Assembly (NCBI GenBank): GCA_024707075.1
Contig: JANQAK010000004.1
Location: 372,001 to 436,000 of the forward strand
Source of the DNA: Afipia sp.
GTDB taxonomy: Bacteria; Pseudomonadota; Alphaproteobacteria; Rhizobiales; Xanthobacteraceae
Length of the DNA: 64,000 nucleotides
Direction of reading: 5' to 3'
Shown one piece after another: positions 59,236 to 63,077 of this stretch (the stretch's first letter is position 1; the number at the start of each line of letters is the position of its first letter). Made by a program: the position numbers and the translations under genes. The notes beneath the pieces are model-generated. The model was not told the DNA's origin. It saw only the letters and a list, made by a program, of their open reading frames with translations, and ran no database searches.

Positions 59236-59265
59236 TTGACTAGTTCTAAAAAAGAACTGTAACGT
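59236..59265 (+). promoter_or_regulatory. Promoter with embedded dyad before the Liv-type receptor gene
   Basis: TTGACT (59236-59241) and TAACGT (59260-59265) are 18 bases apart and look like -35 and -10 boxes. The spacer holds AGTTC-TAAAAAA-GAACT (59242-59258), an inverted repeat. The gene starts 99 bases further on. The same dyad and arrangement occurs at 63048. The gap 58979-59364 (386 bases) contains nothing else recognised. Confidence 0.6.
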
Positions 59266-59364
59266 CTTCATCAACGATGGCCGCTCCAAAAGGCCGCAAA
59301 CCAAAATTCAGCCTGTGCCTGTCGTGACGACGGGTGCAGTTCATCGCCACAGGGAGGAGATACG

Positions 59365-60564
59365 ATGTTCAAGGGTTTCAAAATCGCGGCGGCATTGGTG
59401 CTGGGGCTGTCCGGGTCTGCTTTCGCAGCCGATGCGCCCGGCGTCACTGCGACCGAAATCAAAATCGGAGGCGTGTTTCCGTTCAGCGGACCGGCATCAT
59501 CCATCGGTCTCGTCGGCAAGGGCGTGCTCGCCTATGTGCAGTCGATCAACGATCGCGGTGGCATCAACGGCCGCAAGATCAATTACATTGCTTACGACGA
59601 CGCCTACAGCCCGCCGAAAGCCGTCGAGCACGCGCGCAAGCTGGTGGAAAGCGACGAGGTTGCCTTCATGTTCGGGCAACTCGGCACGCCGGGTCTCTCG
59701 GCCACCGCGAAGTATTTCACCACCAAGAAAATTCCGACACTGGCGATCATCAGCGGGTCGGCCAAGTTCACCAATGTCGCGGACTATCCCCTGACGACGA
59801 CGGGCCTCGTCAGCTACGACACCGAAGGAAAGATCTACGCCAAGTATCTGACCCGGACGCTGCCGAACGCGAAATATGCGATCCTTTACCAGAACGACGA
59901 TCTCGGAAAGGACTACGTCAAGGCTTTCAAGGAGTTTCTGGGAGCTGACTTCGACAAGCGGGTTGTGACCGCGGCTTACGAGATTTCCGATCCGACGATC
60001 GATTCACAGGTCGTCAACCTCAAGGCGTCGGGCGCCGAGGCGCTGCTGGTTGCGGGCACGCCGAAGTTCTCCGCGCAGGCTATTCGCAAGGCATCCGAGA
60101 TCGGATGGAAGCCGACCCTGATCATCAATTTCCCTTCGACGTCGGTGGCGGCCACGCTCAAGCCGGCGGGTCTCGACAAGTCCGTCGGCGTGATCGTCGG
60201 CACCTTTCTCAAGGACCCCACGGACACGAAGTGGGACAACGATCCCGGCATGAAGCAATACCGCGCGTTCTTCGACAAGTATCTGTCGGGCTCGGACATC
60301 GGCGATACCAACTACCTGACCGGCTACCAGCAGGGGATGGTGCTTGAACAGCTTCTCAAGCAGTGCGGGGATGATCTGTCGCGCGAGAACATCATCAAGC
60401 AGGCCAAGAGCCTGAAGGATGTGGTGCTGCCCACCGCGATGCCCGGCATCAAGATCAACACCACTGACAAGGTCAACCAGCTCTGGACCCAACTTCAGCT
60501 TCAGCGTTGGAGCGGCTCAAGCTGGGAGCAGTTCGGCGAAGTGCTCGACGCCAGGTCCGAGTAA
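59365..60564 (+). CDS. ABC transporter substrate-binding protein, LivK-like (peripla_BP_6)
   Basis: The 399-aa protein has a Sec signal (FKIAAALVLGLSGSAFAADA, cleavage near residue 22), then a type I periplasmic binding fold with VTATEIKIGGVFPFSGPASSIGLVGKGVLAYVQSINDRGGINGRKI and EHARKLVESDEVAFMFGQLGTPGLSATAKYF. Family members bind branched-chain amino acids or, often in this group, aromatic and aliphatic carboxylates. No permease or ATPase gene is in view. It is followed by an acyl-CoA synthetase after 110 bases, so the ligand may be an acid that is activated next. Confidence 0.9.
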   Translation: MFKGFKIAAALVLGLSGSAFAADAPGVTATEIKIGGVFPFSGPASSIGLVGKGVLAYVQSINDRGGINGRKINYIAYDDAYSPPKAVEHARKLVESDEVAFMFGQLGTPGLSATAKYFTTKKIPTLAIISGSAKFTNVADYPLTTTGLVSYDTEGKIYAKYLTRTLPNAKYAILYQNDDLGKDYVKAFKEFLGADFDKRVVTAAYEISDPTIDSQVVNLKASGAEALLVAGTPKFSAQAIRKASEIGWKPTLIINFPSTSVAATLKPAGLDKSVGVIVGTFLKDPTDTKWDNDPGMKQYRAFFDKYLSGSDIGDTNYLTGYQQGMVLEQLLKQCGDDLSRENIIKQAKSLKDVVLPTAMPGIKINTTDKVNQLWTQLQLQRWSGSSWEQFGEVLDARSE

Positions 60565-60674
60565 CGCAGCGTTTGCCGGATAAGAACCGCGATCGGCGTT
60601 CCGTCACGGGGGGCCGGTCGTGCGTCAGATACTTCATCCGTTCAATCTGTCTTTGAAATTCAGGGAGAAAGCCA

Positions 60675-62306
60675 GTGAAGGGCCTGATGCAAAATCAGCC
60701 GTTGCTGCTGTCGTCGCTGTTGCGCCATGCGGACCGGTTTCATGCCAATACGGAAATCGTCTCCCGCACGGTCGAAGGTCCGATCCATCGCTATACGTAT
60801 CGCGATGCCGCACGGCGGGCGCGTCAACTGGCGAGCGCCTTGCAGCGCCACGGCATTGGACACAGCGATCGCGTTGCGACGCTGGCCTGGAACAACTATC
60901 GCCATTTCGAGATCGAACACGGCGTCACCGGCATGGGCGCCATCTGGCACGCCATCAATCCGAGACTGATCCCGGCCCAATTGATCTACATCGCAAATCA
61001 CGCCGAGGACAAGGTTCTGTTCTTCGAGAGTTCTTTCCTGCCGCTGGTGGAAAAGCTCGCGCCCGATCTTCCGACGGTCGGTCTGTTTGTGCTGATGGCG
61101 GATCGCGCCGCGTTGCCCGCCGTCACCAGCATTCCCAATCTTCAGTGCTATGAGGATTTCATCTCCGCGGGCGATGAGGGTTTCGCCTGGCCGGTGTTTG
61201 ATGAACTGTCCGCCTCGTCACTTTTCTACACGTCCGGGACAACCGGCAATCCGAAGGGCGTGCTTTATTCCCATCGTTCGGACGTGCTGCATTGCCTGTC
61301 CATCACCGGCGTCTATTCGATGGGGCTGGCTGCGACCGACACCATCCTGCCGATGACGCCGATGTTTCATGCCAACGGAGCGTGGGGATTTACCCATGCC
61401 GCTCCGATGGTGGGCGCCAAGCTCGTGCTGCCCGGTCCCAGGATGGATGCCGCGAGCATCGCCGAACTGATCGAGATGGAAGGCGTCACAGTCACGGCCG
61501 GCGTTCCGACGCTGTATTCCAAACTGCTCCAGCATTTCGAGGAGCAGGGCCGGGGAGCGGGAACGATGCAGCGGCTGGTGGTCGCAGGCTCCGCACCCGC
61601 GCCAAGCATGATCGAAGGTTTCGAGCGTCTCGGTGTCTCTGTCAATCACGTCTGGGGGATGACCGAAACCAGTCCCTGCGGGACATCGACCCAGCCGTCG
61701 CGCAGGACGGCAAAGGCTTCGCCGCAGGAGCAGCTAGGCCGCAAGACCATGCAGGGCACGCCGGTCTATGGCGTCGACGTCAAGATCGCCGACGAGAACG
61801 GCAACGAGATGCCGCATGACGGCAAGTCGAGCGGACGCTTCATGGTGCGCGGGCCGTGGGTGCTGAGCGGCTACTATCGCGACGAGAAGCCGTTGCTGGA
61901 AGACGGCTGGTTCAACACCGGCGACCTCGCCGTGATGGACGATGACAACTACATCCAGCTCACCGACCGCGCCAAGGACGTCATCAAGTCGGGCGGCGAG
62001 TGGATCAGTTCGATCGACGTTGAGAACCTGGCGGCGGGATGCCCCGGCGTTGCGGAGGCTGCGGTCATCGGCATTCCGCATCCGCAGTGGGAAGAGCGTC
62101 CGTTGCTCATCGTGGTGCCGTCCGCATCGGAGCCTGCGACGGCCAAGGCTGTGCTGTCATTTCTGGAAGGGAAGATCGCCAAGTGGTGGATGCCGGACGA
62201 TGTCATCTTCGTCGAGGCCTTGACCTATGGCGCGACCGGCAAGGTGCAGAAGATGGAATTGCGGCGTCGCTTCGCCGGACACTACACGTCGCAAAAAAGT
62301 GCTTAA
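60675..62306 (+). CDS. Fatty-acid/aryl-CoA synthetase (AMP-forming)
   Basis: The 543-aa enzyme activates a carboxylate to its CoA thioester. Motifs are YTSGTTGNPKGVLYSHRS (P-loop), WGMTETSP (adenine site), TGDLAVMDDDNYIQLTDRAKDVIKSGGEWIS (hinge) and the C-terminal lysine GKVQKMELR. It resembles medium/long-chain and methylmercaptopropionate ligases. The start is GTG 60675 with GGGAGAAA upstream. It probably shares the receptor's promoter. Confidence 0.9.
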   Translation: MKGLMQNQPLLLSSLLRHADRFHANTEIVSRTVEGPIHRYTYRDAARRARQLASALQRHGIGHSDRVATLAWNNYRHFEIEHGVTGMGAIWHAINPRLIPAQLIYIANHAEDKVLFFESSFLPLVEKLAPDLPTVGLFVLMADRAALPAVTSIPNLQCYEDFISAGDEGFAWPVFDELSASSLFYTSGTTGNPKGVLYSHRSDVLHCLSITGVYSMGLAATDTILPMTPMFHANGAWGFTHAAPMVGAKLVLPGPRMDAASIAELIEMEGVTVTAGVPTLYSKLLQHFEEQGRGAGTMQRLVVAGSAPAPSMIEGFERLGVSVNHVWGMTETSPCGTSTQPSRRTAKASPQEQLGRKTMQGTPVYGVDVKIADENGNEMPHDGKSSGRFMVRGPWVLSGYYRDEKPLLEDGWFNTGDLAVMDDDNYIQLTDRAKDVIKSGGEWISSIDVENLAAGCPGVAEAAVIGIPHPQWEERPLLIVVPSASEPATAKAVLSFLEGKIAKWWMPDDVIFVEALTYGATGKVQKMELRRRFAGHYTSQKSA

Positions 62307-62330: not shown

Positions 62331-62379
62331 CCCTTATTATCTTATACGTTGAAATGGCCGGCTTGCAGAAGCCGGCCGT

Positions 62380-62904
62380 TCAGGCGGCGCGAGCCTTTGC
62401 GCGCGTGGCCTTTGCCTTGACCACCTTGGAGGGCTTCGGCGCGTCGGTCTTCGGGCGGGCGCCGGGGCCGGGGAAAACGTCGACTTCCTTAGCGAGCAGG
62501 GGGTCACCGCATTCCGAGCACACCATGACCGGGTCGAACTGCTTGCCGCAATTTTTGTGAACATGAAGCAGGGGGCGGCCGCGTTCGTCCACCATATGAA
62601 TGTCGCCCCAGTGAACGATCGCCATCATGATCGGATAGAGGTCGAGGCCCTTCTGGGTGAGAATGTATTCGTGGCGCTTCGGCGATTCCTGATAAGGAAC
62701 CCGCCGCAACACGCCGAGACGAACCATTTTCTTGAGCCGTTCCGCCAGCAGGTGCCGTGTGATGCCCAAGGCGGCCTGGAAGGCCTCGAACCGGCGGGTC
62801 CGCAGGAAGCATTCCCGCAAGATGAGGAGACTCCAGCGGTCGCCGATCACGCCGATGGTGCGGGCCATGGAACATGGCTCATCTTCAAGTTCGTCCCATC
62901 TCAT
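62380..62904 (-). CDS. HxlR-family regulator with C-terminal Cys cluster
   Basis: The 174-aa protein has an HxlR winged helix (CSMARTIGVIGDRWSLLILRECFLRTRRFEAFQAALGITRHLLAERLKKMVRLGVLRRVPY) and a C-terminal extension with NCGKQFDPVMVCSECGDPL, three Cys in CX(10)CX2C, and an Ala/Lys/Pro-rich tail. The extension suggests a metal or redox site. It lies between the receptor/synthetase pair and the isomerase/CoA-transferase pair, whose promoters share a dyad. A GGAC-AAAA-GTCC dyad is located in its own leader (62989-63000). Confidence 0.88.
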   Translation of the reverse strand: MRWDELEDEPCSMARTIGVIGDRWSLLILRECFLRTRRFEAFQAALGITRHLLAERLKKMVRLGVLRRVPYQESPKRHEYILTQKGLDLYPIMMAIVHWGDIHMVDERGRPLLHVHKNCGKQFDPVMVCSECGDPLLAKEVDVFPGPGARPKTDAPKPSKVVKAKATRAKARAA

Positions 62905-63047
62905 AGTCGTCTCCGATTCGTGCCTCAGGCGTATTCCCAGATCATATTCATAGCCTGCCGGGGCCTCATTCTAAATAGGCACTGAGTTGGACAAAAGTCC
63001 TAATTGTGGCCCGGCCCGCTCAAAAGCGGCACATCGGCCACCTCGAA

Positions 63048-63077
63048 TTGACAGTTCGATTTTAGAACCCTAAGAAT
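63048..63077 (+). promoter_or_regulatory. Promoter with embedded dyad before the isomerase gene
   Basis: TTGACA (63048-63053) and TAAGAAT (63071-63077) are separated by exactly 17 bases. The spacer starts GTTC-GATTTTA-GAAC (63054-63068), the same GTTC-N7-GAAC dyad as at 59243. The gene starts 73 bases downstream. A repressor bound here would cover both RNA polymerase boxes. Confidence 0.6.

What the first reader, a model, noticed from the sequence alone, without database searches (positions are those of the whole stretch)
59236..63077. Same dyad embedded in two promoters flanking an HxlR regulator
GTTC-N7-GAAC occurs between the -35 and -10 boxes of two promoters 3.8 kb apart: TTGACT-A-GTTC-TAAAAAA-GAAC-TG-TAACGT (59236-59265) and TTGACA-GTTC-GATTTTA-GAAC-CC-TAAGAAT (63048-63077). 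The HxlR gene lies between the two transcription units it would control: receptor plus acyl-CoA synthetase, and isomerase plus CoA-transferase. The architecture is seen; the regulator-operator link is inferred. The likely inducer would be an acyl-CoA or its acid. The regulator also has a Cys-rich tail, which is unusual for the family.
Basis: partly seen in the sequence, partly recalled or inferred. Interest (0 to 1): 0.75.

Follow-up and report, generated by a model that had tools for sequence, protein, structure and literature searches.

The report
HxlR regulon with promoter-embedded operator
A small bacterial regulator and one short DNA palindrome placed inside promoters occur together in Afipia, Bradyrhizobium and a Rhodopseudomonas, which predicts that the regulator switches genes for taking up and breaking down some unidentified acid; the pairing rests on genome comparison and has not been tested at the bench.

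Summary
The bare dyad is common (3 in the window, 1.24 expected); TTGAC-N1-2-dyad is not: 4 in the genome, 0 in one 5.3-Mb Markov sequence.

All 80 HxlR orthologs, chosen by protein alone, have the dyad within 400 bp upstream. In 248 family genomes TTGACA-dyads are in 38 of 43 with this HxlR and 1 of 205 without. Six of 55 HxlR genes lack a TTGACN site; all six have the dyad with a weaker -35 or longer linker. A paralogous HxlR has the same dyad; 11 other HxlR-family loci do not.

The predicted regulon exceeds the finding: an SDR/ligase promoter pair 2.7 kb past the window, weaker partner sites (one at 59092-59106), a degenerate copy before HxlR, and candidate sites at distant SBP and ABC-transporter genes.

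Most likely an HxlR dimer represses by occluding the core promoter. Binding, sign and inducer are untested; regulator and targets are lost together, which weakens co-occurrence. An ordinary mechanism in a regulon for which I found no paper.

The parts
59092..59106 (.). auxiliary degenerate operator GTTC-AAAAATT-GAAT, 151 bp upstream of the main SBP-promoter operator
   Evidence: PWM score 14.3, third best in the 64-kb window; a site scoring >=10 lies 60-260 bp upstream of the main SBP site in 30 of 47 loci (31 of 50 rows), 0 of 1000 shuffled regions
59236..59265 (+). promoter of the SBP unit with the operator (59243-59257) between -35 TTGACT and -10 TAACGT
   Evidence: the main SBP site of 47 of 47 loci has the same layout, TTGAC with a 2-nt linker and TA after the dyad
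59365..60564 (+). periplasmic solute-binding protein (Peripla_BP_6)
60675..62306 (+). acyl-CoA synthetase (AMP-binding), best curated model 3-(methylthio)propionyl-CoA ligase but below its cut-off (740.6 of 822)
62380..62904 (-). HxlR-family regulator with invariant Cys11 and a Cys/His-rich tail (H114-x-H116-x2-C119 ... C129-x2-C132)
   Evidence: PF01638 77.1 bits, cut-off 20.8
62968..62982 (-). degenerate dyad (ATTC-TAAATAG-GCAC on +) before HxlR; possible autoregulatory site
   Evidence: second conserved island of the HxlR upstream region, 73 of 80 loci kept as non-redundant; PWM score only 4.5
63048..63076 (+). promoter of the DsbA/CoA-transferase unit with the operator (63054-63068) between -35 TTGACA and -10 TAAGAA
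   Evidence: TTGAC with a 1-nt linker in 70 of 73 rows (the other 3 have TTTACA), TA after the dyad in 73 of 73
63151..63789 (+).
   Evidence: PF01323
63886..64000 (+). start of a class III (CaiB-type) CoA-transferase that continues past the window (L008:86-1285)

Best explanation
The HxlR protein encoded at 62380-62904 binds, as a dimer, the 15-bp inverted repeat GTTC-N7-GAAC (A/T-rich core). In its main target promoters the repeat fills the spacer between -35 and -10, so the bound dimer would exclude RNA polymerase: repression of the SBP-ligase unit and the DsbA-CoA-transferase unit, and also of an SDR-GST unit and a ligase-SDR-acyl-CoA-dehydrogenase-thiolase unit just beyond the window. A catabolite of the pathway would release it. 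Weaker partner sites 110-234 bp upstream of the SBP operator may raise local occupancy, and a degenerate copy before HxlR suggests autoregulation. Shown: site positions, conservation, association with the regulator. Inferred: binding, repression, inducer, autoregulation.
For: 80 of 80 orthologous HxlR loci have the dyad within 400 bp upstream (79 at 132-242 bp, one at 391). A scan of all 4-mer palindromes with 0-12 bp spacers in 260 bp upstream of HxlR ranks GTTC-N7-GAAC first, 79 of 80 loci; the best motif in 20 shuffles reaches 5 of 80. In 248 family genomes TTGACA-dyad: 38 of 43 with HxlR, 1 of 205 without, Fisher p 4e-38, uncorrected for phylogeny. 49 of 55 HxlR genes have a TTGACN site within 600 bp upstream, all 49 pointing away from HxlR; the other 6 have the dyad behind TTTACA, CTTACA or TTACC, or with a 2-nt linker. 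The second HxlR of the same genome (L009:8249-8812) has the dyad beside it; the other 11 HxlR-family loci have none. The dyad stays beside HxlR where the next gene is a MatE transporter (L169) or a chemoreceptor (L171). -35, dyad and TA of -10 form a conserved island. The half-sites lie 11 bp apart, near one turn, in line with the 34.8 A between recognition helices of DNA-bound B. subtilis HxlR (PMC7835342, passages).
Against: No binding or expression data. Regulator and targets are lost together: the 9 congeners without a close HxlR (G003, 6, 7, 8, 10, 12, 20, 21, 22) also have no match to the SBP (E<=1e-150) or IclR (E<=1e-90) queries, so part of the co-occurrence could reflect loss of the genes. 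HxlR-family regulators can activate (B. subtilis HxlR). The degenerate site before HxlR scores poorly (4.5). Distances to auxiliary sites are not significantly helically phased (Rayleigh p 0.07-0.46). G025 has dyads but no close HxlR; its assembly (910 contigs) splits the cluster over short contigs, and its site on C376 adjoins none of the cluster genes searched. 12 of the TTGACA sites listed lie away from any HxlR, one of them in a genome without it (G205).
Confidence: 0.82

Rival explanations
1. HxlR binds the dyads but its signal is an electrophile sensed through the conserved N-terminal Cys (Cys11), as in YodB/HypR/HxlR, and the regulated enzymes (GST, DsbA-like, SDR) remove or process reactive intermediates.
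For: Cys11 invariant in 10 of 10 and 14 of 14 aligned orthologs; a GST and a DsbA-like protein sit among the predicted regulated genes; Cys11 is the reported sensor in relatives (PMC7835342 passages).
Against: Lys13, needed for the formaldehyde crosslink, is Met in the window protein. A Cys at a like place is also in other HxlR-family proteins of the genome (sequences), so it is a family feature. The ligase, CoA-transferase, acyl-CoA dehydrogenase and thiolase content points to acid catabolism.
Confidence: 0.3
2. The dyad is the site of another regulator (for example LexA, whose alphaproteobacterial box is recalled as GTTC-N7-GTTC, or an IclR-type protein) that happens to control the same genes.
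For: Half-site and spacing resemble the recalled SOS box; one dyad pair lies in and behind an IclR gene.
Against: LexA is expected in all these genomes (recalled, not searched), yet TTGACA-dyads are in 1 of 205 without the HxlR. 6 of 14 IclR orthologs have no dyad although the IclR-ABC gene order is the same. The half-sites are inverted, not direct. The regulated genes are not SOS genes.
Confidence: 0.07
3. HxlR activates these promoters: binding in the spacer re-shapes the promoter, MerR-like, instead of blocking it.
For: B. subtilis HxlR is an activator. The operator lies exactly in the spacer.
Against: Spacers are 17 and 18 bp with good -35 boxes, the standard length, not the 19-20 bp of MerR promoters (recalled). 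Such promoters would be expected to fire unaided.
Confidence: 0.11
4. The dyads are chance palindromes.
For: The bare dyad is not enriched in the window or genome.
Against: TTGAC-N1-2-dyad 4 in the genome against 0 in Markov sequence.
Confidence: 0.01

Closest known systems
HxlR of Bacillus subtilis (MarR/DUF24 family, PDB 7bzd/7bze/7bzg)
   Same: Same domain (PF01638; phmmer E 1.6e-9, residues 10-104), the Cys11 position, expected dimer reading half-sites one turn apart.
   Different: Activates transcription when formaldehyde crosslinks Cys11 and Lys13; here residue 13 is Met, there is a Cys/His-rich tail, the operator lies in the spacer of promoters, and the targets are uptake and acyl-CoA genes.
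YodB / CatR / HypR (MarR/DUF24 electrophile sensors of B. subtilis)
   Same: Same family; YodB has a solved structure matched here (5hs7); a review table gives YodB and CatR as repressors and HypR as activator (PMC10458429 passages).
   Different: They control detoxification genes; their operators were not compared here because the two papers sought were not held.
4gcv and PA1607 (2f2e), solved HxlR-family proteins
   Same: Closest solved sequences (E 4.5e-23 and 7.7e-23); 4gcv aligns through the tail region.
   Different: The aligned tail of 4gcv lacks the Cys ligands; the entry names give no function.
CouR (MarR repressor released by p-coumaroyl-CoA, Rhodococcus jostii; PMC4737184)
   Different: MarR proper, not HxlR; an analogy only.

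Membership tests
HxlR/DUF24 (PF01638) | HxlR winged-helix domain above curated cut-off | tested here: met
   77.1 bits against 20.8; paralog 81 bits
HxlR/DUF24 (PF01638) | conserved N-terminal Cys (position 11) | tested here: met
   invariant in alignments A1 (10 rows) and A2 (14 rows)
HxlR/DUF24 (PF01638) | dimer with winged-helix fold | not testable with these tools
formaldehyde-sensing HxlR proper | Cys11-Lys13 pair | tested here: not met
   residue 13 is Met in the window protein
RrpA/RrpB redox regulators (NCBIfam) | curated model cut-off | tested here: not met
   RrpB 44.9 of 175 bits, RrpA 28.6 of 185 bits
HxlR operator (this regulon) | dyad next to every ortholog and close paralog of the regulator | tested here: met
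   80 of 80 loci; 55 of 55 genes when (49 with TTGACN; the remaining 6) are added; these two sets overlap in species; G025, with dyads but no HxlR found, is the unexplained reverse case
HxlR operator (this regulon) | direct binding by the protein | not testable with these tools
   no experiment

The most novel reading that the evidence does not exclude
A distinct HxlR subfamily with a Cys/His-rich tail governs a catabolic regulon through paired operators: a strong site inside the core promoter, a weaker partner 110-234 bp away, and a half-degenerate copy before its own gene. Two such paralogs (68-73% identical) share one operator code, so two branches of a pathway for an electrophilic acid are cross-regulated, and uptake (several SBPs and, in one clade, a whole ABC transporter) is recruited by planting the same dyad.
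Probability: 0.3. Interest if true: 0.6.

Novelty: new member of a known kind. Interest (0 to 1): 0.45.

Why it matters
HxlR-family regulators are abundant and few have a known operator (recalled). This gives a precise, testable operator and regulon for a branch found in Afipia, Bradyrhizobium and a Rhodopseudomonas, gives a handle on an uncharacterised acid-degradation cluster, and predicts cross-talk between two paralogous regulators.

Tried and rejected
Chance: rejected. LexA/IclR ownership of the dyad: judged unlikely; LexA itself was not searched. Helical phasing of main and auxiliary sites: not significant (30 of the 31 distances, the repeated L146 row dropped). dsbA homologs in genomes without HxlR as an independent test: 43 of the 85 genomes with a DsbA homolog at E<=1e-60 lack the HxlR and 0 of 43 have a TTGACA-dyad, but their DsbA homologs are 50-65% identical in the rows printed, so they look like paralogs; this supports only weakly. 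Literature: seven searches pairing HxlR or DUF24 with regulon, operator, organism or assay terms listed no paper that I recognised, from title and start of abstract, as being on this regulon; they showed 5 to 25 papers each, of up to 396 matching. Searches (cluster enzymes, 0 papers; tail) gave nothing either. The library holds only openly licensed PMC papers. Papers seen: PMC7835342, PMC10458429 and PMC9069715 in passages, the rest in search listings only.

Counting cautions: the 80 loci are the best of 307 relatives and overlap in species with the 55 genes. In one search four of the 15 added loci repeat the 80 (L170=L092, L172=L151, L173=L128, L174=L093, judged by matching contig length or sequence); counts on the 80 alone are (212 dyads: 201 near cluster genes, 8 near none, 3 inside genes). 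One search dropped 7 of 80 as redundant before the footprint. The 50 SBP1-class rows are 47 loci: L113, L143 and L146 have a second row (an auxiliary or a GC-rich site), and these three second rows are the ones without TTGAC and TA. The 73 DsbA rows include 4 from loci outside the 80. HxlR presence means E<=1e-60.
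Full report
The observation. By itself GTTC-N7-GAAC means little: 3 copies in the window against 1.24 expected, 62 in the genome against 44 for the reversed control, and 108 in one 5.3-Mb Markov sequence. With TTGAC one or two bases in front it is rare. The genome has four such sites: the two of the finding, a third 2.7 kb past the window end (C3:438713) and a fourth at C5:1250154; the Markov sequence has none.

The organism. Contigs of genomes placed in its genus (for example G014:C1, 4,399,548 bases, and G019:C1, 2,944,842 bases) have the lengths of named Afipia records, so it is most likely an Afipia (inference).

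What the extra sites are. The third lies before a second acyl-CoA ligase followed by SDR, two acyl-CoA dehydrogenase and thiolase ORFs, and 132 bp from a degenerate site (GTTCTTATTTGGTAC) at the start of a divergent SDR-GST pair. The fourth lies between a second HxlR gene and an SBP gene, at a like place relative to the regulator as in the window. A fifth, without a TTGAC box, precedes another SBP gene (C6:469461); all 8 closest orthologs of that SBP (L205-L212, this genome included) have such a site, score 19.1-25.2, 63-76 bp upstream, and 24 of the 27 SBP matches examined have a site scoring 8 or more within 500 bp (of the 3 without, L216 and L219 are shortened loci whose gene position my script misplaces, L231 has none). 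A pair lies in the 3' end of an IclR gene and before an ABC-transporter operon.

Conservation. One scan of named genomes with HxlR orthologs kept 80 loci of 307, chosen by protein alone: Afipia and Bradyrhizobium, one Rhodopseudomonas, and a few MAGs named only to family, order or class. All 80 have the dyad within 400 bp upstream of HxlR; 79 at 132-242 bp, one at 391. Scanning every 4-mer palindrome with spacers 0-12 in 260 bp upstream puts GTTC-N7-GAAC first (79 of 80); the best in 20 shuffles is 5. On 73 non-redundant upstream regions two islands stand out: TTTGACAGTTC-N-ATTTTAGAACT-N-TA and CATTCTAGATAGGTACT. The second lies about 65 bp before the HxlR start and reads as a degenerate dyad of the same length (ATTC-N7-GTAC); in one locus, L149, an exact dyad lies at that place. 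I take it as a possible autoregulatory operator, but its matrix score in the window is low (4.5).

Association with the regulator. In 248 family genomes, TTGACA-dyads are in 38 of 43 genomes with a close HxlR and 1 of 205 without (Fisher p 4e-38; related genomes are not independent). 49 of 55 HxlR genes have a TTGACN-dyad within 600 bp upstream, in all 49 with the promoter pointing away from HxlR; 12 listed TTGACA sites are not beside an HxlR. The other six HxlR genes have the dyad too, with a weaker -35 (TTTACA, CTTACA, TTACC) or a 2-nt linker, one of them 391 bp away. Among HxlR-family loci of the window's own genome, the dyad is beside two (window and paralog) and beside none of the other 11 (an ArsR-like weak match, L167, also without dyad, was set aside). 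In L169 and L171 the dyad stays beside HxlR although the next gene is a MatE transporter or a Cache/HAMP chemoreceptor. Against this, the 9 congeners without a close HxlR also lack matches to the SBP and IclR queries, so regulator and targets go together and co-occurrence alone cannot prove the link. G025 has dyads but no close HxlR; its assembly is broken into 910 contigs and the HxlR/DsbA part of the cluster was not seen in the pieces fetched.

Anatomy. In 73 DsbA-side rows the linker after TTGAC is 1 nt in 70 (the other three, two of them one record, have TTTACA), and TA stands at +2/+3 after the dyad in 73 of 73, giving a 17-bp spacer. The main SBP-side site of 47 of 47 loci has a 2-nt linker and TA, giving 18 bp. 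A matrix from 219 gene-proximal sites of other loci ranks 59243 (26.9) and 63054 (24.0) first and second in the window and 59092 (14.3) third. Such a weaker site (score 10 or more) lies 60-260 bp upstream of the SBP-side site in 30 of 47 loci, against 0 of 1000 shuffled regions. Distances are not significantly phased with the helix, so strict looping is not supported.

IclR locus. 14 of 37 genomes searched have the IclR ortholog; 8 have both dyads and 6 none, though all 14 keep the same IclR-ABC order and have an HxlR. The pair therefore does not belong to IclR as such; a clade-specific extension of the HxlR regulon to a transporter is the simplest reading (inference).

Regulator. PF01638 at 77.1 bits; nearest solved sequences 4gcv and PA1607. 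Cys11 is invariant in the orthologs aligned, residue 13 is Met in the window protein, and the tail H-x-H-x2-C ... C-x2-C is invariant in 10 of 10 and 14 of 14, which suggests a metal site (inference). C-x2-C tails occur in 4 of 13 HxlR-family loci of the genome, among them a 341-aa frame with two HxlR domains in tandem.

Pathway. SBP, ligases, DsbA-like protein, class III CoA-transferase, GST, SDRs, PimC/PimD-like acyl-CoA dehydrogenases (below their curated cut-offs) and thiolase suggest uptake and CoA-dependent degradation of a carboxylic acid. The substrate is not determined. Gene content varies between genomes (DsbA in 70, CoA-transferase in 60, GST in 56, SBP in 47 of 80 loci; a ligase best matching the window's own was found in only 8; flanks of 6 kb cut some genes off), while the dyad is in all 80.

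Mechanism and likelihood. An HxlR dimer at the dyad, one helical turn between half-sites, in the promoter spacer: repression by occlusion. Link of regulator and dyad about 0.92; repression given the link about 0.89; inducer open between an acyl-CoA or acid and an electrophile. Novelty: no paper on this regulon was recognised in the listings of seven searches; the kind of system is known.

Noticed in passing
L001 (G000:C1:472653-472695) and similar sites in congeners: A second promoter-like dyad family, TTGAC directly followed by GTTCA-N5-TGAAC, appears once or twice in many genus members (listing); here the GTTCA-N5-TGAAC unit occurs twice, 28 bp apart. Probably the site of another regulator.
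   Followed up: no
L010:5674-5688 and L010:5878-5892: A high-scoring dyad inside the 3' end of an IclR gene, with its partner before an ABC operon; both present in 8 of 14 genomes with that IclR and absent in 6.
   Followed up: yes
L008:6582-7346 and L009:6870-8079: Two cluster genes of this genome (a PimD-like acyl-CoA dehydrogenase and the paralogous SBP) look frameshifted: real decay or assembly errors.
   Followed up: no
L158/L164 (G000:C1:323351-324214): A 341-aa open frame with two HxlR domains in tandem, each followed by a C-x2-C tail; pairs of adjacent matches of this kind are listed in several relatives.
   Followed up: partly
window 62307-62345: An inverted repeat (GCCGGAGATCCGGC) between the convergent ligase and HxlR genes, with A and T runs near it: a possible bidirectional terminator, seen by eye.
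   Followed up: no
L169:4324-4373: Two dyads 35 bp apart beside an HxlR ortholog 64% identical to the window's, before a MatE transporter gene.
   Followed up: partly
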